A stretch of 64,000 nt of DNA, from assembly GCA_001632435.1 (NCBI GenBank), contig KV424018.1:45030-109029 (forward strand), given 5' to 3'. Positions within the stretch are counted from its first letter, which is position 1; the number at the start of each line of letters is the position of its first letter. A model generated the notes under the pieces. That model had not been told where the DNA came from. It saw only the letters and a list, made by a program, of their open reading frames with translations, and did no database searches. This stretch comes from Calocera cornea HHB12733 (lineage: Eukaryota > Basidiomycota > Dacrymycetes > Dacrymycetales > Dacrymycetaceae). Below, piece by piece: positions 1,765 through 63,670 of this stretch. Both the position numbers and the translations under genes were made by a program.

Positions 1765-2260
1765 CCGGAAGCAGATTACTCTAATGAAAACAAATTGTGT
1801 GACGGAAGCAGACCATATAGTGGAAGTAAATACTTGAGCGGAAGCAAATGGGCTCACAGATGGAAATGCTATTGCGGAAGCAAGCCAAATGCAGAAGGAG
1901 ATGATACAACGGAAGAAAATGTAATACCGGAAGCAAATTTAAAGCGGAAGCAGAATTTGCCACAGAAACAGACTGATGTACGGAAGCAGATATGGTCATG
2001 GAGATCATTGCTGTCAGTGGAAGCCGATTGCTCCGCAGAAGTAAACATGGAAGCGGAAGCAGGAGTACTGGAGGGCAAACAACTGAAACCACCCAAGTCA
2101 GCCCTTGTAGCGGAAGCAGATGTACAAGCGGAAGTAAATAATCTCACGGAAGCAACAGCTGGGCGGTGACACGCGGAAGCAAGGGATTAGCGGAAGCAAA
2201 TAAGTGGGCGGAACTAAACGCATTGCGCGGAAGCACAACGTTGGACGGAAGCAGACCAGC
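1765..2260 (+). repeat. CGGARGYAAA array 1
   Basis: About 20 copies of a core close to CGGAAGCAAAT or CGGAAGCAGAT, all in the same orientation, lie roughly 17-36 bases apart and are separated by unrelated spacers. The array ends next to a degenerate form of the shared boundary motif at 2289-2326 (GTGCAGAGTGAC, then CACTCGAAACTCCTCC). Several reading frames stay open across it because the core lacks stops; these are not treated as genes. It lies just beyond the 3' end of the isomerase gene. Confidence 0.85.
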
Positions 2261-2491
2261 TCGCAAAGTAAGAAATGGACACAGAAGAGTGCAGAGTGAC
2301 TGTCCCAACACTCGAAACTCCTCCCCGAAGTCGCGTAAGCCGAGGAATCGGGTGAACAGTACGGTACGACCTGCAGGCCCGAGACCCCTTGCAAAGCAAG
2401 AGGTGTCCGTCTCGTATTGTGTAAGGCGTAACATCTGTGTTGTTCGTTTGTTGATGGTTCTATTTCAACTTCTTTGATCGATTTTCTCAAC

Positions 2492-3745
2492 CTACACGTC
2501 TCTATGTTCCCTTTTATGCACAGTGCCATCAGCTAGCTTGATCGTTATACTTCCATCCTAAGGAAGGTGAGTTGGAATTTCTGTGCGGGGGCCTGAGACA
2601 AACCTCGTTGCCGAAGTATGCTGCCTTAGCCATATTACAGAATAGGCCGACCTCCACTACACCCGTCAGCATCTTAATTTCTCGCAGGATCTGGTCAAAG
2701 CAATGTCAGCAAACATAGTGCAGCAAGCAGCAGACAGTTGCAGACCTGTTCTGGCTCTTCGTATCTCGACGAGCTGAAGGGCGCATCAATCACGAAGTTG
2801 CCATTGTCGGTAACAACCGGTCCAGCCTTAGCCTTCGCCATCCGCAGAGCTGCCGCCTTCGAACCCATTCTGTGCAGGTTCTGCAGTAGTCTAGCATATG
2901 CGAATGGCGTGACCTCGATAGGCACACCCTGCTTCCACTGCAAGCCGAATTGTTCAGCGCTAGGATGTAGGCAGGAACGAAGGCTTACGGTGGTTCCAAG
3001 GGTCTCTGAGTTCTTTCTAAAGTCGGCTACAATGATGAAGCTGGTCAAAGCGCTGTTAACGTACAGAACGTTTGGCAATCGCAAAGGAAGCCTACGTCTC
3101 TGCAGCCTCTGCTAAGACCTTCTCACGGAGTTGGCATGCGCCACCACCCTTGATACAGTTCAAGCGCCTATCAACCCTGAACGCTTTCTTCAGAATTGCA
3201 CACCAGTGTGCTAGACTGGGCCCACTCATCGGCTCCATCGATTGTGACATCGAGGTTCGGGTATTGGTCAACATCGCCAAGAGTAAGGCCCGCGTTCACA
3301 ATCAACTCCTTCGACTGAAACCCTGGAGAATACATGAAGCAAGTTGGGGATTCATTTTAGGGTTAAGACGTACCAGTAGGAAGAAATACCCTGTCCTTGT
3401 TCAGCTCTTTGCCTTGCGCAAGGATGCGCTCCACGACAAACGGCACGGTAGAGCCTGTCACAGTGTTAGCTCCAGTCAGCTGATTGCAAACCCAGATATG
3501 ACGCACCAGATCCAATTCCGATAAGCTAGAACGCTATGAGCGAGCCATAGAGCAAAACTGGGCCTACATACCTTATGTTCAGGTAAAACATGTTCATCAA
3601 CGGCGGTCCACGCCGCCAACTGTTTGGCCGCATCAATACCCGTGAGAGCTGCTCGCATCGGTTTGGATGATGACGAAGGCGGTTGCGGTGGCGCGATGGG
3701 GGTACCCACAGAACTGGCGATGGTTTGGTTGAGACGTTCACTCAT
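2492..3745 (-). CDS. RKI1: Ribose-5-phosphate isomerase A
   Basis: Interconverts ribose-5-phosphate and ribulose-5-phosphate in the non-oxidative pentose phosphate pathway, in the cytosol. I could join nine exons (eight introns of about 45-60 bases) into one frame of about 285 residues, close to the family length. RpiA signatures appear in order: IIGIGSGST-like [67 protein letters not shown] and [20 protein letters not shown]. The substrate-binding GSGST loop and the catalytic DGADE and KGGG motifs are intact. The start at 3745 ([11 protein letters not shown]) fits the short N-terminus of yeast Rki1; an in-frame ATG at 3865 would add 40 residues. It is divergent from TFB5, with 172 bases between starts. 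Confidence 0.93.
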
Positions 3746-3917
3746 GTTGGTTCTAAGTTGACGAGAGACTGAAGCGATGTCGGATATTTGAGCACACTTG
3801 CTGGCAAATGGAAGCACGTTTGTGGGTAGCGTTGCACCGATCTGCCGGGCCACCCTGAGCACCATCAGCCTTCACCTAGCTCGATACGTCCGATCGCTTG
3901 AGTCAAGGCCTCACGCA
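3746..3917. promoter_or_regulatory. Divergent promoter RKI1 / TFB5
   Basis: These 172 bases separate two divergent start codons, so both promoters must lie here or overlap the 5' ends of the genes. I see no clear TATA box. The role is inferred from gene arrangement only. If RKI1 starts at 3865 the shared region shrinks to 52 bases. Confidence 0.45.
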
Positions 3918-4312
3918 ATGAAAGCATACAAGGGTGCGTGTTGCTGAGTGAATCATCTTGGGCTCTGCCATCTCATAGAGCTATCAGGTGCACTCTTGAC
4001 ATGGTTAGTTTTGGATGGCTATTTGCGCGTGGCTAGGGATGCTCATGCCACTTTGTCACCTCTTCGCCACCCGTTCCGCCGCCACCAGCGATGCGGCCGT
4101 GAAGCAGATCCTCCTCATGATGGATGAAAGCGAGAAGTTCATTATACAGGATTTGGATGATACCCATCTCGTCGTGCAGATGGATCAGTTAGAGAGAGTG
4201 CAAAGGATGCTCGAAGTCGAGGTAATGATCTGCTCTCTAATTGTAATGACCTGCCTAACCGCGTGCCATGCTTCAGCTGGAGAAGAACACATACAGCCTG
4301 GATCCCCAATAG
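3918..4312 (+). CDS. TFB5: TFIIH subunit TFB5 (TTDA/p8)
   Basis: Smallest core subunit of TFIIH, which stabilises the XPB/XPD helicase core for transcription initiation and nucleotide excision repair. Four exons join to 66 residues: 3918-3933, 3988-4003, 4089-4221 and 4277-4312. The product starts MKAYKGALLTCDAAVKQILL, carries the hallmark KFIIQDLDDTHL, and ends NTYSLDPQ. Length and order match yeast and human TFB5. The first two coding exons are only 16 bases each, so automatic gene finders are likely to miss the true N-terminus. It is convergent with NDUFA2; the stop codons are 17 bases apart. Confidence 0.93.
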
Positions 4313-4329
4313 TCCTGAACAGGGGTTGG

Positions 4330-4731
4330 TCATGGACTGACAAGCTCCTCCACTTTGCGCTCGATGTCAGTTACGCTCAGATTGTCGACATCCACATGTT
4401 TCTCGAGACCCCGTTCTGGGTCGAGAGTCAGTAACGGTATTCGTATGTGTATGTCAAGTGGGGGCGTTACCGAACCGTGCAAACACGCGCGCCGGCGTAC
4501 CGTTTGCTTCGCGCACGAGCACTGGTAGATCGGGATTGGCCTTTTTAATGCCTGGATAAGCAGATTGTATGAATTGTCTTAATCAAGGCGCATCATCAGC
4601 TTATCGTCGTGCACATTTGGGGTTGTAACCAAGGCTCACCTAACTCCTGCGGATGCCTGACCGGACTGACAGCACAGAATCCGTAGTTCCCGTACAGTTG
4701 GAGATAATGCCTTGGCCAATGCCGACGACAT
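4330..4731 (-). CDS. NDUFA2: NADH dehydrogenase complex I subunit B8 (NDUFA2)
   Basis: Accessory subunit of mitochondrial complex I with a thioredoxin-like fold. Three exons join to a protein of about 95 residues. It begins MSSALAKALSPTVRELRILC and continues with the family motif KKANPDLPVLVREANGTPAR, then VFARFERGLEKHV and a helical C-terminus ending EELVSP. Length and the L51/S25/CI-B8 domain layout match the family. The first intron follows SAGVR and the second splits the RF-E junction. It is divergent from the RGS gene, with 303 bases between starts. I rate this as secure, although no cleavable presequence is evident, as usual for this subunit. Confidence 0.93.
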
Positions 4732-5034
4732 GTTGGAGTATTGCTATGCAGTAAATCGCTGTGCCTGTGAAGGGTCACCTCGGGCTCAACGCGCGTTACG
4801 TCTGGAAAGCCTCGCTGATTTGCTTCCTTTGCAACGCGCGAGATCAACGCGCTGTTGTTCCCATACGTCCATCTTCCGCTCTCCCGCAAGCCTCAATACC
4901 GTCCTTACCCGTCTTCAACTAACTTCGCACCCTTATCACGCCCTCCTTACAACCTAAGTATCAACTGTAAGCTCGAAGGGTTGAACGTGCATCACCTGCT
5001 GGCTCACGACTCTGCTTAGCTCTTTGTTATCACG
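4732..5034. promoter_or_regulatory. Divergent promoter NDUFA2 / RAX1-like
   Basis: These 303 bases lie between divergent starts and are the only space for both promoters. The half nearer the + gene is pyrimidine-rich. No specific factor site was identified. Confidence 0.4.
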
Positions 5035-6295
5035 ATGCCCGCCGACCGCCTCCCGTCGTTTCAAGAGGTCCTTGCCCGGAAGACTCGCCCCCCGGTGGAC
5101 TTGTTTATGTTCTAGTGAGTGGTCGTGGTCGCAGTCTAAGTCCTTCTGCTGATGCGTGCCAGTCTTTTTCTACAGCGGGAGCACGCGGAGGATGTGTTGG
5201 ACTTCTGGCTGGATGTGCAACAGCACGAGAACCTTTGTCGCGCATACTTCAGAGATGTGAGGAAGTCTGGCAGGTCCATCAAGGAGGACTGGCCACAGTA
5301 CTGGGATTATGCCAGAACGAGAGGCAGTATCTACGGCAATGTGGTCGGAGTACACAACGGTAAACGTAGTACCGCGAGCACCGCAAACGTCACGGATACG
5401 GAGAAGGCCGCCTTCGCCGCAGGTTCACGCTCGGCTTCACCTCGCCCTGTGACGCCGCATGGTACGAACCCGTTCGAGGCGCAGCAGGCTGCGATGGAAG
5501 AAGCCCCGCCCCGTTCCACGACACCGTTCTCGTTCAGGCGTGTCTCCGCCATGAACAAGCGGGCCTCGCGGGCGCCAACTGTCATTCCCCGCGACGCTGC
5601 AATCACTCGCATGGATCTCATCAGCTCGGCCGAACGCCTCTATGCCCGATATCTCATGCCGGGCACGGACAAGGAGATATACCTTCCTTCCACCCTTCGA
5701 ATCCACTCGTTCCCCCTCAATTCGCGGGAGCTTCCTCGACCGACGTCCCCTGACTACGACATCGAGAGCTCAACCCTAGCACAGGTTCCCGATATGTTCC
5801 ATGCGCAGAAGGAATACGTTTTCAGGACCATGGAGCAGGACGCTTTCCCCAGGTTCCTTCGAGCAAAGGCTTTCGCCAATCTCACCCCCGTCAGTGCATT
5901 CGTGAGGCTTTGTCTGGGCCTCTTCTGCCTATGGGCCGCACTCTCCACCGCTTTTTCACTCATATTTCTCGACATCCAACCGAAATCGAAGCGATTCTTC
6001 GTGAGTAATGCTCACTCGAAGCTGTGGGTGCGATGCTTACGATGCCGGTCCAATGCAGCTTTTCATTCCCTTTGCTTTTGCAGCCCTGTTTTTGATTTCG
6101 TACCAGTATGAACTGGATCCCATTCTCGTCTTCTTCGGGCAGTCTGAGACCACGCCCTTCAGGCTGATTCGCATTCGAGAGCCTTATGTCAGGAAGTTAC
6201 TCCTCGGTCGGGCGTTATGGGTTTCACTTATCATTGTCCTGGCGTTTACCGTTTCGACGATCATATTTTGGGCAGTACCTGGACATCGTTTATGA
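5035..6295 (+). CDS. RGS-domain membrane protein, RAX1-like
   Basis: Predicted regulator-of-G-protein-signalling protein with membrane spans, resembling fungal Rax1, which marks bud or polarity sites. Three exons: 5035-5114, 5163-6000 and 6059-6295. The N-terminus MPADRLPSFQEVLARKTRPP leads into an RGS-type helix set (REHAEDVLDFWLDVQQHENL). A Ser/Pro-rich linker follows. The second half of the RGS bundle (LYARYLMPGTDKEIYLP, then FPRFLRAKAF) comes next. At least three hydrophobic spans follow: VRLCLGLFCLWAALSTAFSL, LFIPFAFAALFLISYQYEL and WVSLIIVLAFTVSTIIFWAV. Codons across the first junction give FMFYLFLQREHA. Known Rax1 proteins share this RGS-plus-transmembrane order; the polarity role is inferred. 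Confidence 0.75.
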
Positions 6296-6573
6296 GATTC
6301 GCTGCGTAGCTCATGCTCTATGAGCAAAACTTATACCCTGTACAGTTGCACGTAGTGGAATCGCAGATCATTACACTATTTGTCATTCGTAGGTGTTGGC
6401 AGACTAGAGAGTATGGTACTGCCGAATGTGAGAGGGATGTGTCGGAAAGCACCTCCACATGTGAAGATAAGGGGAACGTGACGCCAAAGCGAAGTACAAC
6501 GCTCATAACGTAGTAAATCAATGACGATCGAAGGAGCCGTGAGAAAAAAAAGGTATGAACGCGTATGCTAGGC

Positions 6574-7620: not shown

Positions 7621-7988
7621 AGTGGAGGAGGTCGGAGAGTAGATAATGGATGGATATTAGAGGAAGCAAGCCCCGCTGACCGTCTCAAGTCTGCGAGGCA
7701 GGAGAGGCGGAGAGGAGGGCGCGTAGATGAGTCGTGTGAGCGGAATGAAGGAAGGAAGCGGGAAGAGGAGGGGGGCGCGTAAAGGGGAAGGGGGGTGATC
7801 AGTTGAACACGGACCCAAACGCGGGCGTGACGGCCCCCACCACGGGGTCATTCCCACGAGCTAATCAGATCCCGGTTCACACGAAGTAGTAACTCCGACG
7901 CGTCACTCCGGCGCCAAGTGGCCCTTATAGGGTCCGACCTCGGTGACTCACGGGACTCACAACCGTCGGCCGTTGCGATTGCTCGACA
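7621..7988. promoter_or_regulatory. Divergent promoter, HMG gene / MED8
   Basis: A 368-base region between divergent starts. Its first half is purine-rich on the + strand, so pyrimidine-rich upstream of the HMG gene, as common in fungal promoters. An ACGCGT-containing site (CCGACGCGTCACTCC, near 7897) would match the cell-cycle MluI box, but a single six-base match is weak evidence. Confidence 0.4.
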
Positions 7989-8995: not shown

Positions 8996-9159
8996 TGCAG
9001 TGTTTACCAATGTGCCTAAATCAGCTTTGATAATGCGACTGGTGTACTGGGTGGTCCGTTCATCCTGATGGCGGCACATCTGTTGCTTTTGCTTGCTTCT
9101 CCAGCAAGCGCCTTCGACATACGGTCAGTTCGGCTTCAGGGAGAAGATCAAGCTTTGTC

Positions 9160-9916: not shown

Positions 9917-10086
9917 TTTGGCAAGAGAAACAACTGGGAGGATGCTTGTACAGTGAATAGGCACGGCTCAAGCAGAGCCCTGATTTCGTAATGATCGGCT
10001 CTGCGCTCAGCAGAGCTTACAGATATACCTCCGTTTACTCCCGTGCCCGCGTCAAGGAATGTTGACAGTGTCCTTCCGGGAAGCAC

Positions 10087-10274
10087 AGGCAGCCAAGCGG
10101 AAGTGTTGAGGATGCAAATATGGCAGCAGAAATAAATGTATCATTGGAAGTAGATTGTTTAAGCAAGCAAATATCTGGCGGAACACCAAAGTTCAACAAG
10201 CGGAGCCAAAGTATCGGAGGCATACTTGATGGTGCAGAGCGCAGAGCGACTTTCACGAAACTCGGAAGTCCTCT
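10087..10274 (+). repeat. CGGARGYAAA array 2 with boundary motif
   Basis: A short, worn array: cores such as GCGGAAGTG, TTGGAAGTAGATT, GGCGGAACACC and GCGGAGCCAAAG at irregular spacing up to about 10215. The shared boundary follows at 10232-10274 (GTGCAGAGCGCAGAGCGACT, then ACGAAACTCGGAAGTCCTCT). Orientation relative to the boundary is the same as in arrays 1 and 4. It lies between the 5' side of the Cue1-like gene and the 3' end of the OSCA-like gene. Confidence 0.7.
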
Positions 10275-10382
10275 AGCAAAATGGCCCACGGGTCGCCAAG
10301 CGCAGCGAAGGTGCAAGCGTATTCTACTGCTGTGCCGCATATGTACATGGTATAGCTATAACTAGGGTATTAAACGAATCAT

Positions 10383-14072: not shown

Positions 14073-14083
14073 GTTGCATTAGC

Positions 14084-19080: not shown

Positions 19081-19366
19081 GGTGATAGCCGGCAGAACAG
19101 GACAATGGACGCTAAACCGTCATGAGGTGCCACTACCACTGTACTCAGATGAGTTGCCGTCTCAAGGCAGAGTGATTACGGAGATTTTGGCCAGTTGTTG
19201 GGCCCTAGGGTAGCATCACATCGCGGCGCCTGCCGAAAGGCGGACCTTTTCCAGGACGTCCCAAGCGGGAGCAAAGAAACACTCAAGCGGGAGCAAAAGC
19301 GGCGCAACTTAGAGGACTTCTTTCGCTCCCGCTTGGCCATCCTTTCGCTCCCGCTTCCACCAGTTC

Positions 19367-22728: not shown

Positions 22729-24162
22729 TCAGTAGTCGTCAGGCGTTGACAACAACTCTTCGACCTCCGCTGCGTCATCTAGTATATCTTCCCAGTTGGC
22801 AATTTGAGGGGGCCGCCGCATCACGCAATCATTGACCAGATCTACATCGTCCTCGTCCTTTGTCAAATCCACAATCTCTGGCATCGACCATATCATAGTG
22901 TCCCATGCCGGGGCCGATCGCGATCTGCTCGATGCCTTGCGACGCGAAGCTGAATGATTGTCTATCATGCTCAGCGCGGTAGGGCCTTCTTCATCATCTT
23001 CCTCATCGATTGTCAAATCCACAAGGTCTGCCTTCAGCCATTCCGGCGTATCCCATGCCAGGGCGGATCGAGAGCCGCTCGATGCGCTGGTATGCGAAGC
23101 TGAGTGATCGTCTCTCATGCTCGATGCAGTGGCGCCTTGTGCGGCAGGGACTCGCCCAAATGCATCCCGTGCTTCCAAGGAGGATGAGAATACCTCCTTC
23201 TCCCTCCGCATACCTGTGATCGGGGCCGTCCGATGCATGCCCAGCGTGCCTCTCTTAAAGCTTTGCGAGAACGTATCTGGGCGGATGGGCCTCTTCCGAA
23301 GGTCGTCCTGAGTCACCACAGGGTGCTGCATGAACCGGGGTTCATGGCCGAAGGACGTCATTATGAAACAGTCCCGGAGAAGGGGCTTCGTCAAGTAACC
23401 GATGTACTGGTCTGTTCAATATGATCAATGAATTTCAAGTCGTCTTTGACGGGATTGTAAGCTTACAGCCCGGCCTAGGTCTCAGTTCCAGAATAGGACC
23501 GAAATAAGAGCTCCAATCCACACGAAGACGGATGCAGGTCACATCTATCACACGCCCCTGAAGCTGCCACGGCTTCAAGAAGCTGTCGACCTCTTTCATA
23601 AGGTCACGGTAGAAGCGCCTAATCAGAGTGAAGATCCAGTCGTCGGCTGCCTCCCGATCCCTCGCGCATAAACCACCGATATAGCCCTCCAGGATATCGG
23701 CATAGACTTTGATCTGTGCATGTGAACGATCCATGCCCTGCCGAAGACCAGGAAGCGGACGATCCATTTCCTCGTCAAGACCGAGGGCAATAGTAATGAC
23801 CAGCTGACACCATCTGCACTCGAAGGTTTCGCGCAGATCCTTGAGAATAAGCTGTCAGCATGTCGAAGGGCTCTCATAGAAAACTCACGTGCAAGAGCAG
23901 TGAATCTGCCCCTATACGGTCTATCGTCTTTTCATACAGATACTTGGTCACTTGCGTCTTTAGTGCATCGTCTCCAATCCACGCCATGCGGTCTGACAAG
24001 TGAGATCAGTATACAACGGGCAGGCCACCTGGGTTGTGCAAGCGCACTGAAAGTGTCCAGGAGGACCTCGGAGTTCCGCTTATAGCGCCAAATGTCATAT
24101 CGCACTCTGTCGGTCATCCAGGGCAATGGATCGACCATCTCACGACAAGGATGGGTGAACAT
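22729..24162 (-). CDS. Unknown protein with duplicated SUMO-interaction-like motifs
   Basis: I do not recognise this gene. Joined exons begin within MFTHPCREMVDPLPWMTDRV (a second ATG starts at MVDPLPW). They continue RYDIWRYKRNSEVLLDTFNR, MAWIGDDALKTQVTKYLYEK, DLRETFECRWCQLVITIALG and KVYADILEGYIGGLCARDRE, a helical, possibly globular region. The C-terminal part is disordered and contains a block of about 50 residues present twice: DDHSAS..RSAL-AWDTPEW..LVDLTIDEEDDEE and DNHSAS..RSAP-AWDTMIW..IVDLTKDEDD. Each ends in a hydrophobic VDLT core followed by acids, the usual form of a SUMO-interaction motif. It ends with a third acidic stretch. Nuclear SUMO-dependent function is a guess. Confidence 0.65.
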
Positions 24163-28962: not shown

Positions 28963-29869
28963 ATTTTGGCCCTGCTGTCAATTTGTGTCCGCCAGGAAGC
29001 GGACCCTGACGCCCGCTTTGAACTGTTGCAAGCGGGAGCAAAGGGAGCGCGCCGGCAGTGCAACTTGTGGGAGGACTTGTTCACTCGAGTCAATTCCTCC
29101 GGTAGCCCCCACGAGTGCAAATACTCCAAATGGCCCCTAGAAAGCGGGATCAAGCCGGAGCACGGAAGTAACATAAGTAGCGGAAGTACACTGAACAACG
29201 GAAGCAGATAAAACAATGGAAGCAAGAATAAAACAGCGGAAGCAAGCTCAATACCGGAAGCAACAGTTGGGGGAAGTAAGTTAGGTAGCGGAACCAGACA
29301 ACATGGGAGGAGCGATGGCAGCGGGGCAAGCACATCAAGTGAAGGAAGCAAAGGTGCCTGCGGAAGCAAAACGGAAGCACATGTGGGAGCGGAAGCAGAA
29401 ATAAGTATCGGAAGTAACCTTTCAGCGGAAGTAAATATGAGGGGAAGTAAATCTTCTGCGGAAGCATAATTGAAAACGCAAGCAGAGGGAGAAACGACGG
29501 AAAATGCACTATCAGAAGCAAACTCAGTGGAGAAAGCGGACCCACTCATGAAACCAATAAATGCAGCGGAGGCAGACCAAGTGTCAAGAGCACTTTGGTA
29601 GCGGAAGCCAATGCGATATCGGAAGCAAAACGGCTACCGGAGGCACATTGAGCAGTCCATACAAAAAACAGCGGACACAAATAAGTTTACGGATGCAAAT
29701 AATAACGCGGAGGTAAACCGAATTTCTGGGGTAAATGGACTAGCGGAAGCAAGGGGTACAGCGGACGCAGAACCTTCCGCGAGTAAATTGCCGAAACGGA
29801 AGCACAAGTGCCCTTGCTCGGAAGCAAAGATTGCGACACTTCAGAAATATAAGTCCTCCTCTAAGTTGC
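28963..29869 (+). mobile_element. Element with array 3, bounded by inverted repeats
   Basis: The left part opens ATTTTGGCCCTGCTGTCA (28963), continues with GCGGGAGCAAAGG (29033), then GCAACTTGTGGGAGGACTT (29061-29079). An array of more than 25 CGGAAGCAAA/CGGAAGTAAA cores follows, about 29160-29830. The right boundary is AAGTCCTCCTCTAAGTTGC (29851-29869), which is the reverse complement of the 29061-29079 motif with four differences. So the array is framed by 19-base inverted repeats. No copy of the ATTTTGG terminus is seen on the right. It lies between the eIF3l promoter and the 3' end of the peptidase gene. No protein is encoded. Confidence 0.6.
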
Positions 29870-29921
29870 CCTTCCCGCGTAATCGTCGGCATTGTCAATT
29901 TAAGTACATCACGACAGAGTC

Positions 29922-44242: not shown

Positions 44243-44924
44243 TTGGCATCATCAGGCCCTGCACGTCCTCTTCCTTGTTTCACTGCATCTTGTATATGTA
44301 GACCACTAATCCTTTGCAGCCCCCAGCTGAGTGTCTCTGCAAGTTGACTGCTCTGCGATCTCAAGGCGGTCTTGTATGGCGCAGATGATAGATTAACGGG
44401 CTTGTGAGGTCAACCAGGCATTTCCTGGACTTTCACCGCCCGTTCATCCTTCATCTGCGACCGCAATATGCTTCATGCCGACATTCTTCTGCATGCTTCT
44501 GTCTCAAATCGCCAGCTGCCGACCGGCGCGTCCAAATCCCCTGGCTTGTCGGCCCTCCATGTAAGGTAACAGAACGTGAATCATGGGCAACGAACTCTGG
44601 GAATGGTACTGCTGGCGAGGATTCATTGCTCTAGCGCCACGCTGGAACCCGGAAGTGGCTGGCAACTTGGGTTGCTCACTCAGCAAAGGTGACTGAGGCC
44701 TCATGGGCCCACAGCTTGATTCAAATTTGCTACATATCTTATTGGACGGACCCCAAGGATCTGTTGCCATGTAATCCAACAGATTGGTTTGCATTTTACG
44801 CTTGCCGGATGATAAGTCCAACGACAGTTACAAACGACATCCTTGATCAATGATGGTGATCTCAACGATAGTTACAACAAAATATGTGTTTGCCTCCCGC
44901 CATCAGACCTTACTTCCCTGGGGT
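44243..44924. other. Intergenic, nothing recognised
   Basis: About 680 bases downstream of Mtr4. Composition is ordinary and no open frame has a coding pattern. Confidence 0.5.
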
Positions 44925-45507
44925 GCGTCTGCCTCAGATTGTTGCATCTGCCTCCGCTATAAGGAATTGCGTCCGCGGATACGAAAAAGGGAAGCAAACT
45001 CATAACTCGGAAGCACACTTATAACACGGAAGTAAACACCCAGCACGGAAGCAAACAGATCAAACGGAAGCAAACACATAAAGCGGAAGCAAACACAGAA
45101 CACGGGAACAGACACATTGCATGGAAAAACAAACACATACCACGGACGTAAAAATAGAAAGCGGAAACACATTCGCAAAGGAAGTAAAGATATTTGACAG
45201 AAGTAAATGCACAAGCGGAAGTAAAGACACACGGGCAATAACTACATTATGCGGAGTGAAATATACGAGTGGAAGCAGATATCCTCCGCGGAAGCAGATA
45301 TATATGCGGAAGCAGATATATATGCGGAAGCAGATATATATGCGGAAGTAATGATTGCAGCGGAAGCAGACCAACATGACGGAGGTAATATATTGTAAGC
45401 GGAAGTAGAATTACCCCTAGCGGGAGTAAAATGCGTCGTGTTATTGCTTAGGAGTGTGAGCTGTGTGCACGGCACGAAAGGGTGTCAACGAAACTCGGAA
45501 GTCCTCC
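44925..45507 (+). repeat. CGGARGYAAA array 4 with boundary motif
   Basis: The cleanest array. From about 44990 cores such as CGGAAGCAAACTC, CGGAAGCACAC, CGGAAGTAAACA and CGGAAGCAAACAGA recur about every 18-20 bases, about 22 times. Three near-identical 17-base units (ATATATGCGGAAGCAGAT) occur in a row near 45297-45350. The first 50 bases (44925-44975) carry the core in the opposite sense (TGCCTCCGC, TGCGTCCGC). The right boundary GTGTGCACGGCACGAAAGGG then ACGAAACTCGGAAGTCCTCC (45463-45507) is shared with arrays 1, 2 and 6. Confidence 0.88.
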
Positions 45508-49131: not shown

Positions 49132-49552
49132 CCCGGCCCTCTCCCTCGCCTTCGACAGGTGGACCAACTGCGCCCGACCAGACCAGGCCTACATTCTGCG
49201 CGTCCCGCTCGGCGCGAAAACTAACCTATTACAAGCTACTGAGCCGCAGCTACTTCGTGCCAATCCATTACTTTGCCAACTTCTCCATTTCGTGTGAATC
49301 AATTGTTGGACAGTTGCGTGCCTCTTTCGCATTGCCTACCGCGCATTGCCTTGCCGAAGGCAAGTGCCATGCCCCCTATACACTTGCCCATGCAAACGCG
49401 TCAAAGGACGCAGCTCCCCTCTGCCTCTGGGGGCATCCAAACGACTACTATGGCCTTAAGGGTTCTCGATCGGCACGTCGAGTTCATCAACGACGATTAG
49501 TGCCATTTTTCGCTCTTATAGAGCGTGGAGACACTTCGCGAAGCTTGCTAGG

Positions 49553-50150
49553 ATTTTGGCGCTGCTGGGCCCTTGCATCATCGCCGGAAGCACGATACCT
49601 ACTTCATTGAGCCCCGGAACACCAAAGCGAGAGGAGATTGCCTCCGCTTTCCGCATTTAGCTCCGTCTTATGTATTTGCATCCGCTACTGTGTTTACCTC
49701 CGCTTGATACATTTACTTCCGGATTTAACTCTACCTCCGTTTTTGATATTTGCGTCGGCTTGCCCAGTTGCCTCCCCTTTATGGAGCTACTTCCGCGTAA
49801 ATATTTACCTCCGGTTTATGTATTGGCTTCCGCACTGTGAATTTGTTTCCGATCATATGCTTGCCTCCGCAGCCGAAATTGACGCGGAAGTAAATACCGA
49901 AAGCGGAAGCATATACATTGAAGCGGAGGCGAATACAGAAAACGGAAGCAAACATACAAGACGGATGCAAGTCTACAGAGCGGAAGGAAGTACATAAGCC
50001 GGAACTAAATCTGTAAAGCGGAGGCAAAGATCAATCTCTACTCCCGCTTTGGCGCTCCCCCTGCTTCCGTGTGAGCGCCTCTGTGCTCTCGCCCTTCCAC
50101 CGGGATGCGCCTTTTCCGGTGATGATGCTAGGGTCCAGCAGGGCCAAAAT
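49553..50150. mobile_element. Compact MITE-like element with inverted array (array 5)
   Basis: The ends are inverted repeats of about 35 bases. The left end from 49553 reads ATTTTGGCGCTGCTGGGCCC then TTGCATCATCGCCGGAA. The right end, read on the minus strand from 50150, reads ATTTTGGCCCTGCTGGACCC then TAGCATCATCACCGGAA. They differ at only a few positions. Inside, cores run as TGCCTCCGC/TTACTTCCG (minus sense) from about 49640 to 49875, then as GCGGAAGTAAAT/GCGGAAGCAAAC (plus sense) to about 50030, so the array is itself inverted about a centre near 49880. No coding frame and no clear target-site duplication. Size 598 bases, no transposase, hence non-autonomous if mobile. Confidence 0.7.
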
Positions 50151-51295
50151 GCCCGCCACCCTTTAGGGTAGTTGGGTTTACTAGGGGACGTCGTTTTGGC
50201 AAACCATTAGATGGAAGCTATTCATGTATATGCCTCCGAGTTTTTGACTTTTTCTGACTTTTCTCATGTGATCTGAGGCAAGGACACGTCGACTTTCTTG
50301 TTACACGTGTCTGAGAACACTTAACTAGTTCAGTGCATTCTTTGCTTGATCTATACTCCCTTCAATTCTTTTGAAAAGTGTATATAGACCTGGATGAAGT
50401 GGTATTGTCAATTGGATTCTAATATGAAGTCACATGTCCAGTCACGTGATCTACTCACTTGCTTCCCCAGCCTGTGCACCGGAGGTGCATTTGTGCTGAG
50501 CGAGCATTAGCGAGCAAAGGCCAAATGGACCAGCCGCGGCACGGGTTCCATTTCAAGTGAAATTACTATTATGCAACTGACCTTCTGTGGCTTTGCTGAT
50601 TACCGACCTATCACCTCAAAAAGGGTCCGCTCTGTAGCGGGCTCTGCCGTGCGCGCACGGCCTTCCCCGACTTATCTACTCAGTTATCCGAGAAGTGCCC
50701 CCATAACGCAGCAACTTTATTGAGTTCTGGACTGTGTTATCCGTCCAATGGCGGTTCCAGTGACGGCAAACATGAGAGTAACTGCTTTGACCAACTACAT
50801 TGCCAGTGTTGGTTTCAAGGCCGTACAACAAAATCACTCGCACTTACGAGTGCATATCCTGAAGATTGTTTGTGATGTCACCCATGATCCAACTGTCAGC
50901 TTCAATGACAGTTTTGATTGAGTCAATGACATCGCCAGCAACAGTACCAGTGACGGTTCCGAGGACAGTTTCAACCAACGACAATGCCAAGGGAACACCA
51001 ATGACACTCCCAGCAATGTTTTCCCCGCGGCTCACATGTAACGCTCATATGCTGCTCCAAGCTCAACTCTCGGCTTCCCGGGCCACCAGTCCCACCGTGC
51101 GGTTTCTGGGCGGACGAAAATCAGCGTCCTACAAGCTACCACAGTGCGGCGCTATCATTACTTTTCGTTATTTCGTGCGAGTTATCGTACAGTTGCTGCT
51201 TTCTCATGGAGACGCGGTCCGCTGCAGCGCCCCACGTCATGTCGCACCCACGAAGCGCTCGTGCCCTTCAGCCGCCGAGGTGGAGATCGCGCCCG
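50151..51295. other. Intergenic; short hydrophobic minus-strand frame only
   Basis: Over 1.1 kb without a supported gene. A minus-strand frame at 50844-51035 reads as a small hydrophobic peptide rich in G, V and T (GSVIGVPLALSLVETVLGTV) and could be a fragment of a low-complexity protein. It lacks neighbours in frame and is not called. Confidence 0.4.
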
Positions 51296-55175: not shown

Positions 55176-55192
55176 GAACGAGCAATATTCTG

Positions 55193-56499: not shown

Positions 56500-59400
56500 A
56501 TGAGCGACGAACGACGACTCCCCGAGCGGCCGTATGGCGCGTTCAACCCCGTACCAAAGGTCGCGTACCTGTTCCAAGTGAGCGCATTCCAAAATTCAAC
56601 TTCTCCCTGGCTCGCTTACCCTTTATATAGAATATCGTAGACCCTCGAGGTGCGACAAAGAAAAAGGCGCAGAGAGCATCGGGCGAGAGGGATGAGCAGA
56701 AGCGGCAGACGCACGAGACGCAGAAACTCGTGAGCGACATGCAGCGCGGCAAGGAGATGGACGTGCACGACCCGATCACCAAAGGGTCGGTGACCATCAA
56801 GAATGCAGACGAGGACATCCACGACCAGACGGAGGTGGAGAAGGCAGGTGGGGAGAATGTGCTGAGTATGGACCTTCCGGAACCGGGTAAGCAGTGTGAG
56901 GTCTGCTTGCAAACTGTCTTTTATGCTGATCCACCGCACATAGACTGGGAAGACTATTTCAGAGCATCACAGGCGATATCTACACGCGCCCTGGCTCTCA
57001 CTGCTGCGTCCTACGTAGTGATCCCCATACTCCTGTCTTTCATACCCCTACCGTACCTCTCGCCTGAGTCCTTCATTTACCGCCCTCTCCACTTGCTCCT
57101 CTCTCTCATCCTGCCTTCCCTTCTTGCGTACACCTTCCTCTTCCAAGCCCACCGTCTGATGGCAAACAACCTCGACGAGCGCCGATGGCACTCAGAGCGC
57201 TTACGCGGAGAGATGGCGGGGCAGGACAAGGACGGCGATGGCAAGATTTCGAGCGAGGAACGCGTAAAAGAGAGTGCGGAGTGGCTGAATGCTGCGCTCG
57301 CGCAGATCATTCCGATCTTGAATCCCGATATGTATTCGCCGCATCCTTTCCTTGCTGTGACAGTTCTCTGACCCATCTGTGTAGATTCTCATACCTCATT
57401 GACATGCTGGAGGACGTGATGCAGGCATCGGTGCCAGGAATCGTGCACAGCGTGCGCATCTCGGACATGGGATTGGGGATCACTCCTCTGAGGATTGTAA
57501 GCATCCGCTCGCTACCTGATGCCGAAGGCGCAGCGGAGCAGGAGACGGAGGATGAGAGAGGCACGCATATAGTCCGTCCACGTTGGTCTCTTCATCATGG
57601 ACAGATGCTGACACCAGTTTCATAGAATTTGGAGTTCTCTTTCGCATATCGAGCTGCGCCAAGTGGTAGTGACGTGCAGAGCAAAGCGCAAAATGCACAG
57701 TACGTGACTTGGAAGATCAAATAACAACCGCTGATGACTCGTAGTCTTCTCGTTGAATTCTTTCTTGGGCTCAAAGGTCTTGCCGGAGTAGCCATGCCCG
57801 TATGGGTCGAAATCCGAGGTGTGATAGGCACGGGTCGTGCGCGCCTGCAGTTGGACGGCAACCCGCCGTTCGCGAAGGACTGCACGGTTACACTACTTGG
57901 GCTGCCACAGATCGACATTGCGGCAACCCCGATGAGCCAGAAGTTCGCGAATGTCATGAACCTTCCGGTCATATCCACTTTTGTGAGTTTGCTGCAACAT
58001 GCAATGTCCTTTCTAACATTTTGGCTGCAGATCGAGAACAGCATCAACACGGCTGTCGCGGAGTACGTGGCGCCGAAGCACCTGGTGCTGAACCTTAAGC
58101 AGCTTCTCTCCGGCGATGATATCAAGAAAGACACAATGGCTGTGGGAGTGGTCATCATACATATTCACCGAGCGAAGAACATTAAAGGGTCGGATGGCAA
58201 CGGCAAGTCTGGTACGCACTGAGATTTCATGCTCTGATCTCGGCTAAAATAGCTCATCCCCCAGCAGATCCATACGTGACCGTATGCTACTCGCGCCTAT
58301 CAAAGCCACTCTACTCGACCCGCATCATCTTGGGAGAATTGAACCCCGTGTTCCAAGAGACAGCGTACATCCCGATCGACGCCAGCCTGATCAAGATCCA
58401 AGAGAGTATCCAGCTCCAGCTTTGGGACTCGGACCGCAGCAGTGCGGATGATGTTTTAGGAACTGTCGAGATGGACATCACCGAGATGATTCGGCACCGG
58501 GGGAAGGCGTTCAGACGGTGTATGGCGCTCCAGGGAACAGACAAAGGAACGAAGATGCCCGGAGAGGTACGTTCCTGTTGATTGCAACCAGCTGTCTTCT
58601 GGCTAATGAGAACAGTTGGAATTCACTGTCGGCTTCTACGGAAAGGTTCCCCCAACTACGGCCTTGAAGACGGATGGTGCCGATCCCGGCATTCCCGAAG
58701 ATCTGAAGGACAAGCCCGAGTTCAAGGAAGCTCGTGCGACGGCACTGTCTGACCTGGAAGCAGCAGTGCTGGTCACTCCTCCCGATCCAGCATACCCGTC
58801 AGGCCTGCTCAGTGTCCAGATTCATGAAGTCACGGACTTGGGCATCAACAATACAAAAGGGTCGCTGAAAGGCGGAAAGAGAATGGGTCAGCAAGGGGCG
58901 GAACCGGACGTAGTGAGGGAGGAGGAGGGAACCCATTTTCCGTCTTCGTACTGCAACATGTGAGGTTGTTCCCCGTTCAGGGAGCCATTTGTTGATAATT
59001 CTTGTCGTTTAGCCTTATCAATGACAAACGCGTGTACAAAACCCGAGTGAAGCCGATCTCGGGGATTGCGAACTTCAACGCTGGTGAGATACGCCGTCTA
59101 CCAGGTCCTCTACACGCCTCGGAGTGGCTAATACCCGCTCAAGGCACCGAGAAGTTTATCAGCAACTGGCGTACAAGCCACGTCACGGTCGTTGTTCGTG
59201 ACTCCAGGAACAGGGAGAATGACCCGATTATTGGATTGGTTTTCTTGAAAGTGAGCTGGCCCCGCAAGCCGAAGCCATAGGTGCTGACACCTCCGTAACA
59301 GCTGTCCGATATCTTCGTGAATGCTTCGGAAGTCACGAGGGTTTATCCGTTGGAGCGTGGGATTGGCTATGGGAATGTTAGACTGTCTATCCTCTTCAGG

Positions 59401-60393
59401 TAAGTGCGCGAGAGCATTGCAAGGTGTACTGCTGACAACTGTTCTAGACCAATAGAGGCAAAGTTGTCGTCAAATCTTCTTGGATTCGACATTGGCCTGC
59501 TCCATCTGAAGAGTGTGAAGGTGGTTGAGGTTGATGCAAAGGTCACGGACGAACTCGGTTCTTGCAAGCTGAAGATCGGCACTCCGTCCAGCACACAGAA
59601 GGTTGACAGCGATGTCGCGGAGGAAGAGGATGACTCCGTGGAGTGGGAGCCAGACCAGCCGTTGCTGCTACCTTTGGAAAGGCGATATTCGGAAGCAATG
59701 GTCGTCAAGTTCAAATCCACGGGCATTACATCTTCTACGATTGGGACCGCCGTTCTTTGGCTTCGTGATCTGATTGACAACGATGACAAGCCTGTCCGGG
59801 TGGGCATCTGGCGCGCAGAGAATTACGCGCGCGTCGAGCAGAACTACATTTCTGCTGACGGACTGGAGGAAACCGACTCTCTATCCAACGACGAAAACGA
59901 AGAGGGCCGAACACGCATTGGTACATTGGAGATCCACGTCGTGTTCAAGCCCGGCTTGACGGAAGAGCACACGAAGACTCGTGACACAAGCGATGCCCAT
60001 GCTCGAGAAGAGCAGGAAGCACTCGATCGAATGGATTCTGGTGGCCTGCGCGATCACCTGGATGATGAACCCATCCCAGACCTTGTGTCGGTAAAGTCAA
60101 GCGAGGACAACACCTCAGTGTATCCGGGTGAAACCGAGTACGTCGGCCGGCAGAACCAAGCTCCGGACTCAGACGCGGAAGAGGAAGCAGACGACAGCAA
60201 GAGCCTCAAGGATAAGTTCAAGGATTGGCGGGCTTCTCAGCACAGCCTGCACGCACAGCATCGCGGAGTGATGCAAAAGAAGCCCGCACGAACGACTAAG
60301 TGGATCAAGGATACCATCAAGCAAGAAGGACACAACGTCGCTCAGCGCTTCCGTATGACGGAGCGTCAGCCCGACGTGGAAACGGAAGTCTAG
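56500..60393 (+). CDS. SMP-C2 lipid-transfer protein, Mug190/tricalbin-like
   Basis: Predicted ER-anchored tether for lipid transfer at membrane contact sites. Start MSDERRLPERPYGAFNPVPK. After a charged region come two adjacent hydrophobic spans (TRALALTAASYVVIPILLSF; LHLLLSLILPSLLAYTFLF), a likely ER hairpin. Then a canonical EF-hand loop (DKDGDGKISSEE) precedes an SMP domain (VPGIVHSVRISDMGLGITPL, FSFAYRAAP, GLAGVAMPVWVEIRGVIGTG). C2 domain 1 begins MAVGVVIIHIHRAKNIKGSD with DPYVTVCY; C2 domain 2 begins LLSVQIHEVTDLG; a third C2-like part follows (DSRNRENDPIIGLVFLK). The tail is acidic then basic. Ten or more exons, about 1,150 residues. Confidence 0.85.
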
Positions 60394-60733
60394 TTGACTT
60401 CGACGGGCGGGACAACATCCGTAAGAACAACGATACCCTCTCATGAACGACACCCACATCCCTTATGTCCGTCACACGGCGTTTTGGCGGCACTTTCTGA
60501 GCAAAGAACAAGGACTCCAACACAGATTAGCTGCACGTCGCGAAGACATGCGTATGCACTTTACCCTGTATTTTTACGCGTATCATGATTGCTTAATGTT
60601 CAAACGAATGATGACAATTCCTCCTGAACAGCGCCTGTTACATGACAATAATATACAATCTACAATGGAGTAGCGGTGTCAAGCGTGCAATCCCGTCATC
60701 CGTTCAGCTGCGGCCCCACTCGGTGGGCGCTGG

Positions 60734-62043
60734 CTACTTAACGGGATTGCCGCTGGCGTCCTTTTTCGGCAGGGCGATAGGGGCCGGAGGCTTGGGAGTC
60801 TTGTCAGGCTTGCCTGCAGACCCCGTATTCCGGATTTGCGAGTGCCCAAGCTGATTCTGGCCCCGCATCTTCGGTTGTTCCCCTGGCGAAAGGGGGTCAT
60901 CGTCCTCGTCATCATTCTCGTCGTCCCCATATTTGGTTCTGTCGCCCGTTGTGAACGAGTGCCAAGGGGGACGAGCCTGGTCTACTTACACACTCTCTAC
61001 AGGGATATCCCCCTTAGGAGGTACCCACGAGCCAGTGGTCATAGCGCGTTTTGGTCTGCAGCAGGTGTTACTAGCGCCCTGCCAGGCGAGGAGGCACGCA
61101 AAGGAACGCACGGAGGTCTCATGTTGTTCATGTTGTTGCGTAAGACAGGGAGGGCGTGTGGGTGACTGAAGGCGGTGGTGGCCGAGTAGTCGGAGGGTCG
61201 AGATAGGAGTTAGAGGGCGCGGGCATATATACTCCTGGCGAGGCCCTTCGGGTTTGCGAGCGCTTATCTCGGGAAAATGCCTTCTATGCATGGCGGGCCT
61301 CTGATAGCTGTGGCCAGCAAGCCGGGATTCGCTAACTTCCGCGGCTTCTCGCTCAGGATCCCGCATGCCGGGTAATACAGGGCGGGAATGTTCACGAGAT
61401 GGTGCCGGAAAATGGTGGCCTTGTTGGCAGCGCTCCAAAATGGCGTACAGCGTCCCAATGATGATGGTCAGTCCGGCCATCAAGATCTTGAGCTGTTGCA
61501 ATCATTCTGATGCATAAGCTCAAACGGTAAGACACAATACAATAGGCGGCATTTATTCTGCTTGCCGGTGGAAATGATCTAACGAGCCACTCAACTCACA
61601 TGCGAGAGAAGCTCCATAAATCACTTAGAATTATTTCTGGCCGGCGTGGTCGCGCGAGGCGTGGTCGCTCCTGTATTTTCGACGACAGCTGGTGGGGTGA
61701 GCGTATCGTTGCTGAGCTTGGCTGGCTCCGGTTGAGGCGACTTGGAAGCACGCTCGACAGGTCGAGGCGACGGAGACACGATGCCTACCGAAAGGATCGG
61801 AATCTTCTTCAGGTTCTTGCCGAAATCCGGGAGCTCCTCGGGTCTATGTCTGGCATCAGAGAGTTGTTTCGCTTCGAAAATAGAGGAATGCTGACTCGTC
61901 TTGAAGGTCATCTTCTTCCCAGCTATAGGCACTGAGCGTCAATATGAATAGGATGGCTGTAAGTGCGACCGCCCGTACTATGCGCGGTCATCGTCGCTAT
62001 AGTTGTTCGTAAGCGCTGCAGGCGCGGTGTCACGACGGTACAT
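60734..62043 (-). CDS. Candidate unknown gene, exons only partly resolved
   Basis: The last exon is convincing: RPPWHSFTTGDRTKYGDDEN, then an acidic run and PLSPGEQPKMRGQNQLGHSQ, ending PKKDASGNPVK. Upstream pieces include a membrane-like segment (KILMAGLTIIIGTLYAILER) and a coherent frame (HHLVNIPALYYPACGILSEK). A possible first exon, MYRRDTAPAALTNNYSDDDR, starts at 62043 and splices to YAYSWEEDDLQDESAFLYFR. The order and membership of these exons are uncertain, and more than one gene may be involved. A different frame at 61621-61932 also reads well (FKTSQHSSIFEAKQLSDARH). No family recognised. Confidence 0.3.
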
Positions 62044-62112
62044 TCTGATCAAGGGTGCACGTCAGTTGCAGCTCCCACACGTCCAATTCTTCTCACGAAC
62101 CTCGCTGCCGAC

Positions 62113-62702
62113 ATGGTTGCCCAGGTGACTTCAATTTGATGGTAGGACGGTCGACTGCGGAGGATGAAACTGAGGGACCAGCAAACCGGAACTTCGACTC
62201 TCCTGCCCTTTTATACACTGAAGGCCCGGATTTCCGACTGTACGTTGGGGCAGTGGGGTGAGCTGGGAAACGAGCTCGGGAAAGCAGGATATCAGGCGCG
62301 CACAGTATGGGTTGCGATCAGGGTCCGAGGAGACCCGCATTACACGGAGCGCGCACGGTCACATTCCACTTTGACAATCCCGAGACATTTTTAACCAAGT
62401 ACAATACCGCTATAGAACAACTCTCATCACGACTACGCCCCTTCAATGGCGTCATTCCAGACGCCGTCAAACATCTCCTGATAGGAAGATTCACGACTCA
62501 ACCAAATTATGCCCATTCTCCCCGGCTTCGCTATGAACATGGCGGACATGATCCGAGGCACCCACGCCGTGGCCTTCTTGACCAAGGCCGACTGGGGTCA
62601 CTGCATGAACGTGCTGACTATGATCGACGGCAGATACGTCATAGACCTGTGGACCGTGGTGGACCGTTCCTAAGCCATGGTCGTGGTGAGCGTGCTCCTT
62701 AG
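62113..62702 (+). CDS. Candidate hypothetical gene
   Basis: ATG at 62113 (MVAQ) splices to DETEGPANRNFDSPALLYTE and GPDFRLYVGAVG, then across a second intron to MGCDQGPRRPALHGARTVTF, HFDNPETFLTKYNTAIEQLS and SRLRPFNGVIPDAVKHLLIG. Both introns have GT-AG ends and normal size (about 35-50 bases). The 3' end is uncertain: the frame stays open to 62702, overlapping an opposite-strand His-rich frame. No family recognised. Confidence 0.35.
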
Positions 62703-62823
62703 TGCCATGTCCGCCATGTTCAGGTTCGCGATGCTCGTGAATGCCGTGGTCTCCTTCATGGTGACCGAGTGGGATATGATTGTCTTCCCCCCCAGGATGG
62801 CCTGGTGTAGCTCTGATGACCAT
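62491..62823 (-). CDS. Possible His/Gly-rich low-complexity protein (last exon)
   Basis: The minus frame is open and unusually rich in His, Glu and Gly (NHIPLGHHEGDHGIHEHREP, GTKEHAHHDHG, then DHSQHVHAV). It is preceded in frame by a Pro/Lys segment (PPPPPKPKPLPRPG). His-rich tails occur in metal-binding fungal proteins, but the overlapping + frame is also open, so which strand is coding is not settled. Confidence 0.25.
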   Translation of the reverse strand: MVIRATPGHPGGEDNHIPLGHHEGDHGIHEHREPEHGGHGTKEHAHHDHGLGTVHHGPQVYDVSAVDHSQHVHAVTPVGLGQEGHGVGASDHVRHVHSEAGENGHNLVES

Positions 62824-63355
62824 GCCGGGCCTGGGAAGGGGCTTGGGCTTGGGTGGGGGAGGTGGATTAACCAGACGATGACCGCCCTGATTGAACGCAT
62901 GAGGTGCACCGCTAAACAGGCGCCGATGGGGTTCAAGTCAGTCATCTCTGGTGGCTTATCGCTGATTGACCCCTTACTTGTGCGCCTCCGGGACTGGAGG
63001 TGTGTGATGGTGCTCCGAGGTATCCAGTGTCCCGGAATGACTATTGGCTATCAGCTTATGTTGATAAGGAGATGGTGCCTAAGCGTACTGTTCACCAGGC
63101 GCCAGATGGCTTTCCATGACTAGTTTAACTTGGTATGCTGTAGAGTAGAAGGCAGAATGCTATACGACTGCTTTGTGACCGTCAAGCGGTAGGTCTCGCA
63201 ATAAATAGTGATCCCGCAGCAGCGATGATTGTCACACTATGCTAGAGGTTCATGAATTGGCGCCGGTAATCCCGAGCCCATGGCCCAGGCTGGGTCAGCA
63301 GAGCCGGTGTTATCGGGATGCCGGCAGTTATCATGTGGGAAGAAGCGAGCCTTAT

Positions 63356-63670
63356 GGAGGACTTCCGAGTCTCCTGATTTTGCGCTCTGCACTCGCAGAT
63401 GTACCTCCGTTTGAGTACAGTACTCCGGTCCTTCGCAGAAGCAAAGACATCCCAAACGGAGGCAATGCGGTCACCTTTTGCTCCCGTTTGAAGCAACATC
63501 TGCTTCCGCTAGGGCTAGCTGCTTCGGCTACAGGCATTTGTTTCCGAGGTAGGTGTTTGCTTCGCTTTCATGTATTTACTTCCGTTCTAGTCCTTTACCT
63601 CCCCACCTTTCCCTTGCCTCCCTTACGTGTCCATTTGCCTCCGCGGTCTGGGTATTTGTTTCCGCCTCAC
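63356..63670 (-). repeat. CGGARGYAAA array 6 with boundary motif
   Basis: Read on the minus strand, worn cores such as CGGAAACAAAT, CGGAGGCAAAT, CGGAAGTAAAT and CGGAAGCAGAT run from 63670 down to about 63400. They end at the shared boundary: GTGCAGAGCGCAAAATCAGG then ACTCGGAAGTCCTCC (63392 down to 63356). Core orientation relative to the boundary is the same as in arrays 1, 2 and 4, although the whole unit is on the opposite strand. Confidence 0.8.

What the first reader, a model, noticed from the sequence alone, without database searches (positions are those of the whole stretch)
1765..63670. Six dispersed intergenic arrays of a CGGARGYAAA core with about 20-base period
Arrays near 1765-2260, 10087-10274, 29160-29830, 44925-45507, 49640-50030 and 63400-63670 share a 10-base core, CGGAAGCAAA or CGGAAGTAAA with A/G and C/T wobble. 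The cores are spaced about 18-21 bases apart, but the spacers are unrelated. A fixed core with free spacers at near two helical turns is unlike a normal minisatellite, where the whole unit is copied. It suggests selection or a copying mechanism acting on the core, for example arrayed protein-binding sites inside a mobile element. I know of no named repeat family with this form.
Basis: partly seen in the sequence, partly recalled or inferred. Interest (0 to 1): 0.75.

Follow-up and report, generated by a model that had tools for sequence, protein, structure and literature searches.

The report
Foldback-like transposon arms of spaced cores
Scattered through a jelly-fungus genome are what look like small, long-dead jumping-gene relics whose arms are rows of one short DNA word repeated about every 18 letters with freely varying letters in between, more like a docking strip for a protein than ordinary copied repeats.

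Summary
Six arrays in the window carry a core AGCGGAAG(C/T)AAA at an 18-base period (mostly 17-19) with about 6 information-free spacer bases. The genome is Calocera cornea HHB12733 (Dacrymycetes). The same arrays are dispersed through it; 40 of its 60 lowest-numbered contigs give no match to the strict patterns used. Apart from recent duplications, no two arrays share spacer order beyond shuffles, while cores stay about 88% conserved. So these are not ordinary minisatellites.

The arrays belong to a larger unit. Many flanks share end modules that are inverted at the two ends, and units point outward from the centre (15 minus-then-plus, 3 plus-then-minus). The best-kept copy (window 49533-50172) is terminal module, minus array, plus array, inverted terminal module, and folds at z = -13.8.

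Best reading: relics of a non-autonomous, foldback-like terminal-inverted-repeat transposon whose arms are dense rows of protein-binding sites; Galileo and Tetris of Drosophila are the closest named analogues. Mobility and binding are inferred. No target-site duplication and no autonomous partner were found; KDZ, Plavaka, hAT and MULE matches do not lie in the three candidate intervals checked.

How core and spacing stay fixed while spacers saturate and are never shared between copies is unexplained.

The parts
1673..2255 (+). Array 1, 20 plus-strand units at 18-base period
   Evidence: its last 8 units lie in a 98.3% identical inverted duplicate at C105:21849-22201
2272..2414 (+). Right end module of element 1
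   Evidence: nhmmer E 2e-27; this copy was a seed of the profile
9964..10069 (-). Left end module of element 2, inverted
   Evidence: nhmmer E 2e-22; a seed of the profile
10024..10224 (+). Array 2, decayed: 2 minus then 3 plus units
10216..10290 (+). Right end module of element 2
   Evidence: nhmmer E 9e-14; a seed of the profile
28963..29139 (+). Left end of element 3: outer module (28963-28983, 5 of 21 mismatches) and type-B block (28977-29139)
   Evidence: 28983-29066 is 80% identical to L023 3943-4027; the block is a profile seed
29163..29828 (+). Array 3, 26 plus-strand units
29829..29879 (-). Right end of element 3, inverted type-B block
   Evidence: nhmmer E 0.0018, weak, not a seed, expected place and orientation
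44889..44956 (-). Array 4, minus arm, 3 units
44989..45430 (+). Array 4, plus arm, 19 units, partly 19-base period; three units with the spacer TATATA
45485..45506 (+). Right end motif of element 4
   Evidence: 3 of 22 mismatches to the end motif; profile match not significant (E 1.1)
49533..49582 (+). Left terminal module of element 5, the best-kept copy
   Evidence: 52-column inverted match to the right terminus, score 25 against 9.5 for the reversed control; motif 49553-49573, 2 of 21 mismatches
49637..49869 (-). Array 5, minus arm, 11 units
49885..50028 (+). Array 5, plus arm, 6 units
50121..50172 (-). Right terminal module of element 5, inverted
   Evidence: 49541-50165 folds as one long hairpin, z -13.8
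63400..63664 (-). Array 6, mostly minus-strand units
63350..63435 (-). End module of element 6
   Evidence: nhmmer E 6e-6, not a seed

Best explanation
The arrays are the arms of an old family of short (about 0.3-1 kb), apparently non-coding, foldback-like DNA transposons in Calocera cornea. Each element has terminal modules in inverted orientation and, inside them, one or two arrays whose units point outward to the ends. The 12-base core at an 18-19 base step is most likely a dense row of binding sites for the transposase of an unseen autonomous partner (or for a host protein recruited to the ends). Selection on the mobile lineage kept core and spacing and left the spacers free. Shown: core, period, free spacers, shared end modules, their inverted orientation in several copies, outward polarity. 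Inferred: mobility, protein binding, the partner, and selection as the cause.
For: End-module profile 1 (9 seeds taken beside arrays): 21 matches at E <= 0.01 in 267 kb, 12 of them not seeds; 10 of these 12 lie within 350 bp of an array, where about 15% of the sample lies, and all 10 obey one orientation rule (one of the 10 is the duplicate of a seed copy); with the seeds, 19 of 21 and 18 of 19. The reversed sequence gives 0. Profile 2 (5 seeds): 8 matches, 3 not seeds, 2 of these 3 beside arrays and both in orientation; reversed 0. Both ends of one element are recognised in window 9964-10290 and L019 (both ends seeds), L044 1362-1954 and L047 (no seeds), L023 3942-4575 and window 28977-29879 (left a seed), and by direct alignment in window 49533-50172. 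Left flanks match inverted right flanks of other elements at score >= 20 in 14 of 1190 pairs, reversed control 0 of 1190. Minus-then-plus 15, plus-then-minus 3, two-sided p = 0.0075, over 36 clusters. The 22-base end motif has 35 matches in the genome, 0 in the control; 18 of its 22 contigs also carry array matches. Pooled core conservation 0.877.
Against: No repeat of the 7-10 flanking bases was found within 2.5 kb at the four termini tested. No autonomous copy: KDZ, Plavaka, hAT and MULE matches do not fall in three intervals that I picked by eye as facing end motifs. Taken singly, 8 of 35 array clusters have a left-right inverted score above the highest reversed control (12.5); the mean is 11.0 against 9.5, and a direct-repeat control reaches 16.0 once. 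A plain DNA search with the left end of element 3 finds only itself and one partial match, on C44; it also missed L023, which the profile finds. Arm folding is strong in two elements (z -13.8, -6.4), modest in three (-2.8, -1.8, -1.6) and absent in one (+1.4). Copies share ends but not spacers, which plain copying of one element does not predict. Ends are less conserved (0.68 to the majority over 57 roughly aligned columns) than cores (0.88).
Confidence: 0.6

Rival explanations
1. Host-owned binding platforms: the arrays are kept in place by the fungus, for example as boundary, replication or silencing sites, with core and spacing under selection at each locus.
For: Spacers are saturated while core and spacing are not, and cores are better conserved than the end modules (0.88 against 0.68). 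Array matches are uneven over contigs: with the pattern 41 of the 60 lowest-numbered contigs have none, against 25.5-26.1 expected and at most 36 in 20000 simulations with guessed lengths. In the C105 duplicate pair both differences inside the array fall outside cores, which is far too few to count.
Against: Shared inverted end modules and outward polarity are transposon anatomy. Array number, length and orientation vary freely between loci.
Confidence: 0.2
2. Ordinary minisatellites inside dead transposons: whole 18-base units were copied and have since decayed.
For: Some arrays contain copied neighbours (TATATA x3, TGAGTA x4, CGGGGA x3); adjacent spacers are slightly more alike (0.335) than any two in an array (0.290). 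Tandem Repeats Finder reports parts of arrays 1, 3, 4 and 5.
Against: Decay hits core and spacer alike, yet core pairs are 0.80 identical and spacer pairs 0.29, and unit spacing stays 17-19 in 227 of 255 lags, which saturated decay with insertions and deletions should have blurred.
Confidence: 0.12
3. Remains of coding repeats, a six-residue protein repeat.
For: In prokaryotic genomes the same DNA pattern (26 stretches) is a coding repeat where I looked: 12 arrays in 11 stretches have all spacings divisible by 3, 10 of them with an open frame such as AEAKAEAEAK. In the fungus, 19 of 34 arrays have one of six frames open.
Against: Only 224 of 391 fungal spacings are divisible by 3, strand flips within arrays, inverted end modules.
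Confidence: 0.03

Closest known systems
Galileo, foldback-like P-superfamily transposon of Drosophila (PMC3688188: abstract and section 2.6 read)
   Same: Long terminal inverted repeats whose internal repeats hold extra sites for the transposase's DNA-binding domain; the DNase footprint there is 18 bp.
   Different: Galileo repeats are long direct repeats with a site in the first two of four; here there are up to 31 sites about 18 bases apart with unrelated spacers. No P-type transposase was sought here.
Tetris, foldback element of Drosophila virilis (PMC4079207: passages read)
   Same: Flanking end domain, then a variable tandem array in each arm; apparently non-autonomous, partner not found.
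   Different: Its unit is about 220 bp and about 94% homogeneous, and it has target-site duplications; here 18 bp with only the core conserved and no duplication seen.
FB of Drosophila and TU of sea urchin (recalled, not from a call)
   Same: Foldback arms made of short tandem repeats.
   Different: Whole-unit repeats; animal hosts.
Subterminal repeats of CACTA/EnSpm and hAT elements (recalled; PMC8978399 and PMC10368747 seen only in the search listing)
   Same: Several short copies of a protein-binding motif near both ends, unrelated sequence between.
   Different: Fewer, irregularly spaced motifs and a known transposase; here one strict period and long runs.

Membership tests
Foldback-type transposon | Inverted repeats at both ends | tested here: met
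   Six elements by profile, four of them with at least one non-seed end, and one by direct alignment; not detectable in most of the 35 clusters one by one
Foldback-type transposon | Arms built of internal repeats in inverted orientation, able to fold back | tested here: inconclusive
   Polarity 15 to 3; folding strong in 2 of 6, absent in 1; spacers of the two arms not clearly more alike than in unrelated elements
Foldback-type transposon | Target-site duplication | tested here: not met
   None of 7-10 bases at the four termini tested; termini are not exactly known and copies look old
Foldback-type transposon | Tandem units copied whole | tested here: not met
   Spacer identity near chance
KDZ, Plavaka, hAT or MULE transposon | Matching transposase between the ends | tested here: not met
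   No match in the three intervals C5:194450-204239, C31:11424-28552, C143:52279-57884 (match lists are lower bounds); no array in the KDZ stretches fetched (L029-L042). Other superfamilies not sought
Minisatellite | Whole unit repeated | tested here: not met
   a few arrays hold some copied units
Protein-binding array | A protein binds the core | not testable with these tools
   needs a binding assay

The most novel reading that the evidence does not exclude
Each array is made or maintained independently by a process acting on the core alone: either the fungus keeps these strips as a periodic protein platform confined to part of its chromosomes, or element arms are renewed at each insertion so that core and 18-base step are preserved and the spacers are randomised. 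Either would be a new way for a repeat array to exist.
Probability: 0.12. Interest if true: 0.85.

Novelty: new variant of a known kind. Interest (0 to 1): 0.5.

Why it matters
If right, this is an extreme form of a transposon end: up to about 30 near-identical docking words in register, with everything between them free. It would let one ask directly how many sites and what spacing a transposase (or a host silencing protein) needs. The unexplained part, core and spacing fixed while spacers are saturated and not shared between copies, is a sharp test case for selection on mobile lineages against array renewal.

Tried and rejected
KDZ transposons as the partner: 51 match rows in the genome, but no arrays in the KDZ stretches fetched. 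Plavaka, hAT and MULE: no match within the three end-pair intervals. Arrays as ends of giant elements: the inverted array pair at C37 lies in an inverted duplication of at least 2.9 kb, 99.93% identical, so I take it for a segmental duplication. Two organisms mixed in one assembly: one PRP8 locus and three RPB2-type loci speak for one genome. The two arms of element 5 as copies of each other, spacers included: spacer identity 0.75 against a mean of 0.59 (maximum 0.78) for 129 pairs from different elements under the same alignment, so not shown. Short target-site duplications: none. Rfam and tRNA scans of the window: nothing. Multiple alignment of all long end flanks was too ragged to use. Sequence X (two blocks, 367 and 333 bp, 85-89%) beside arrays in L022 and L046 was considered as the inner part of a longer element: three open frames upstream match no Pfam family at E <= 1, and the one frame searched further matches only a C. 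cornea protein; undecided. A claim that Plavaka transposases avoid array contigs was weakened on recount: 3 of 40 loci against 9 of 31 for KDZ, 8 of 39 for MULE and 3 of 14 for hAT, without contig lengths to weight them (one search had used 31 of 74 Plavaka rows and 31 of 51 KDZ rows).
Full report
What the window is. It is positions 45030-109029 of contig C105 in a 32.1-Mb assembly of 302 contigs. An open frame on contig C9 is 100% identical, over 67% of its length, to a Calocera cornea HHB12733 protein annotated on a contig of 362,627 bases, the length of C9, so the genome is that dacrymycete fungus (lineage). One PRP8 locus and three RPB2-type loci fit a single genome. The window is gene-rich: of 20 open frames scanned with Pfam at E <= 0.001 or 0.01, 13 have a match (RGS, PHM7, SNARE, WD40-type, RWD, MTR4, FMO, GNAT, Mug190-type C2, S9 peptidase, S4; some, such as SNARE, RWD and the WD40-type matches, below the curated cut-off). 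No array overlaps one of those 13; the other open frames were not scanned.

The observation. With one mismatch allowed, 139 units of CGGARGYARA occur in the window, against 15.1 on one strand in simulations; 103 lie in six spans totalling 3.5 kb. In the window and 19 further fetched stretches (of the 20, chosen because they matched a strict pattern; the twentieth overlaps the window), 32 arrays of at least five units hold 402 units. Of 255 lags of 16-22 bases, 154 are 18 and 227 are 17-19. Anchoring on GGAAG alone (275 anchors) shows a core of about 12 positions, A-G-C-G-G-A-A-G-(C/T)-A-A-A, followed by six columns with 0.01-0.09 bits.

Free spacers. Spacer identity is 0.335 for neighbours, 0.290 within arrays and 0.261 between arrays; core identity is 0.80. 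Because units were selected by the core, I also scored 75 single units that the search missed but the period predicts (gaps of 34-38; longer gaps were not scored): they match 6.97 of 10 core positions, against 3.71 at a control offset, each the best of three shifts; pooled with 471 detected units, core conservation is 0.877. No two arrays share spacer order beyond shuffles (best 7.8; highest in 20 shuffles 8.6), except the segmental duplicates on C37 and C105 (77.2 and 30.6). Insertions and deletions usually accompany substitutions at roughly one to ten (recalled), so spacers saturated by substitution should also have lost their length; mostly they have not. Core and spacing are kept, the rest is free.

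A larger unit. The 3' flanks of many arrays share a module around GTCACGAAACTCGGAAGTCCTC. A profile of 9 seeds finds 21 matches at E <= 0.01 in 267 kb and none in reversed sequence. Seeds had been taken beside arrays, so the 12 others are the test: 10 lie within 350 bp of an array and all 10 follow one rule, plus strand to the right of the array and minus strand to the left; one of the 10 (L046) is the duplicate of a seed copy, and three are in L044. Counting seeds, 19 of 21 and 18 of 19; the exception, a seed in L014, lies between two arrays and fits the second. The two matches away from arrays are L023 89-178 and L015 8526-8566; the latter touches a four-unit array below my cut-off. A second, outer block (5 seeds) gives 8 matches, 7 beside arrays in the expected orientation, of which 2 are not seeds. 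Both ends of one element are seen in window 9964-10290, window 28977-29879 (weak), L019, L023, L044 and L047; window 49533-50172 shows a 52-column inverted match between its termini. An outermost motif ATTTTGGCCCTGCTGGACCCT lies at both ends of that element and to the left of two others; of 7 matches with up to 5 mismatches these are 4, and the other 3 are not beside arrays. Taken one by one, most of the 35 clusters show no clear end-to-end match: 8 exceed the highest reversed control, mean 11.0 against 9.5. A plain DNA search of the genome with the left end of element 3 found only itself and one partial match.

Polarity and folding. Where both strands occur in blocks of at least two units, minus precedes plus in 15 cases and follows it in 3 (p = 0.0075, 36 clusters), so units point outward. 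Single-strand folding is far beyond shuffles for window 49541-50165 (z -13.8) and L023 (-6.4), modest for L047, window 9962-10290 and L019 (-2.8, -1.8, -1.6) and absent for the one-directional element 28963-29885 (+1.4). Whether the two arms share spacers is not shown.

Distribution. The strict pattern occurs 132 times in the genome (100 places listed), the end motif 35 times at up to three mismatches; the reversed controls give none. In the window 2 of 6 arrays hold a strict match, so I guess a few hundred arrays in all; this is rough. Of the 60 lowest-numbered contigs, 40 give no match to any of the array or end patterns and 41 none to the pattern, against 25.5-26.1 expected and at most 36 in 20000 simulations with guessed lengths. 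Of transposase loci, 3 of 40 Plavaka, 9 of 31 KDZ, 8 of 39 MULE and 3 of 14 hAT lie on contigs with such a match; contig lengths were not available to weight this.

Mechanism. I read the arrays as arms of a non-autonomous, foldback-like terminal-inverted-repeat element. In Galileo the DNA-binding domain of the transposase protects 18 bp and has extra sites in internal repeats of the long ends (PMC3688188, abstract and section 2.6); Tetris combines an end domain with a tandem arm and also lacks a known partner (PMC4079207, passages). An 18-base step here would pack such sites edge to edge; that the step equals that footprint is suggestive only. Long-term selection for mobility would hold core and step and free the spacers. 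It does not easily explain why copies that share ends share no spacers; turnover of array units, glimpsed in the few copied neighbours, or independent renewal would be needed.

What is known. Passages of two papers on fungal transposons (PMC12730594, PMC9674265) describe ends and duplications of KDZ, Plavaka and hAT families; the words subterminal and tandem repeat do not occur in either. Searches of the held library for KDZ, for subterminal repeats, for foldback elements also in fungi, for core-and-spacer arrays, for the literal core sequences and for Calocera cornea with transposons listed no paper that by title and abstract describes such arrays; the listings show only part of the papers found (for the core sequences 20 of 150). 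Repbase was not available. As a specificity control the pattern was scanned over the prokaryotic genome collection: 26 stretches; in the 11 of these where I examined arrays, all 12 arrays had spacings divisible by three and 10 an open frame, so coding repeats, unlike the fungal arrays (224 of 391 spacings divisible by three). No collection of eukaryotic genomes was searched.

Verdict. A real, genome-wide, non-random feature; most likely a new variant of a known kind (foldback-type transposon arms), with the free-spacer property unusual and unexplained.

Noticed in passing
window 19230-19366: A lone match to the outer end block (E 2.6e-7) on the plus strand, with a weak inverted partner overlapping it (E 0.13), no array nearby: possibly a solo or collapsed element end.
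   Followed up: no
L022 3440-4239 and L046 1694-2843: A shared sequence (two blocks, 85-89% identical) abuts arrays at the same point of a core in two loci; it may be a mobile element that targets the core, or the inner part of a longer element. An upstream open frame matches only a C. cornea protein.
   Followed up: partly
L044/L045 (C37:168501-183500): Inverted duplication of at least 2.9 kb at 99.93% identity carrying an array in each copy, around Gypsy-like and pogo-like frames (recognised by eye); C65 and C105 also hold pairs of identical unit pairs in opposite orientation.
   Followed up: partly
window 819-1153: A dispersed sequence, LTR-like by eye, upstream of array 1, 97.9% identical to an inverted copy at C105:23346-23679.
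   Followed up: no
   Followed up: partly
window 22845-23122: A 150-base unit repeated 1.9 times at 77% matches.
   Followed up: no
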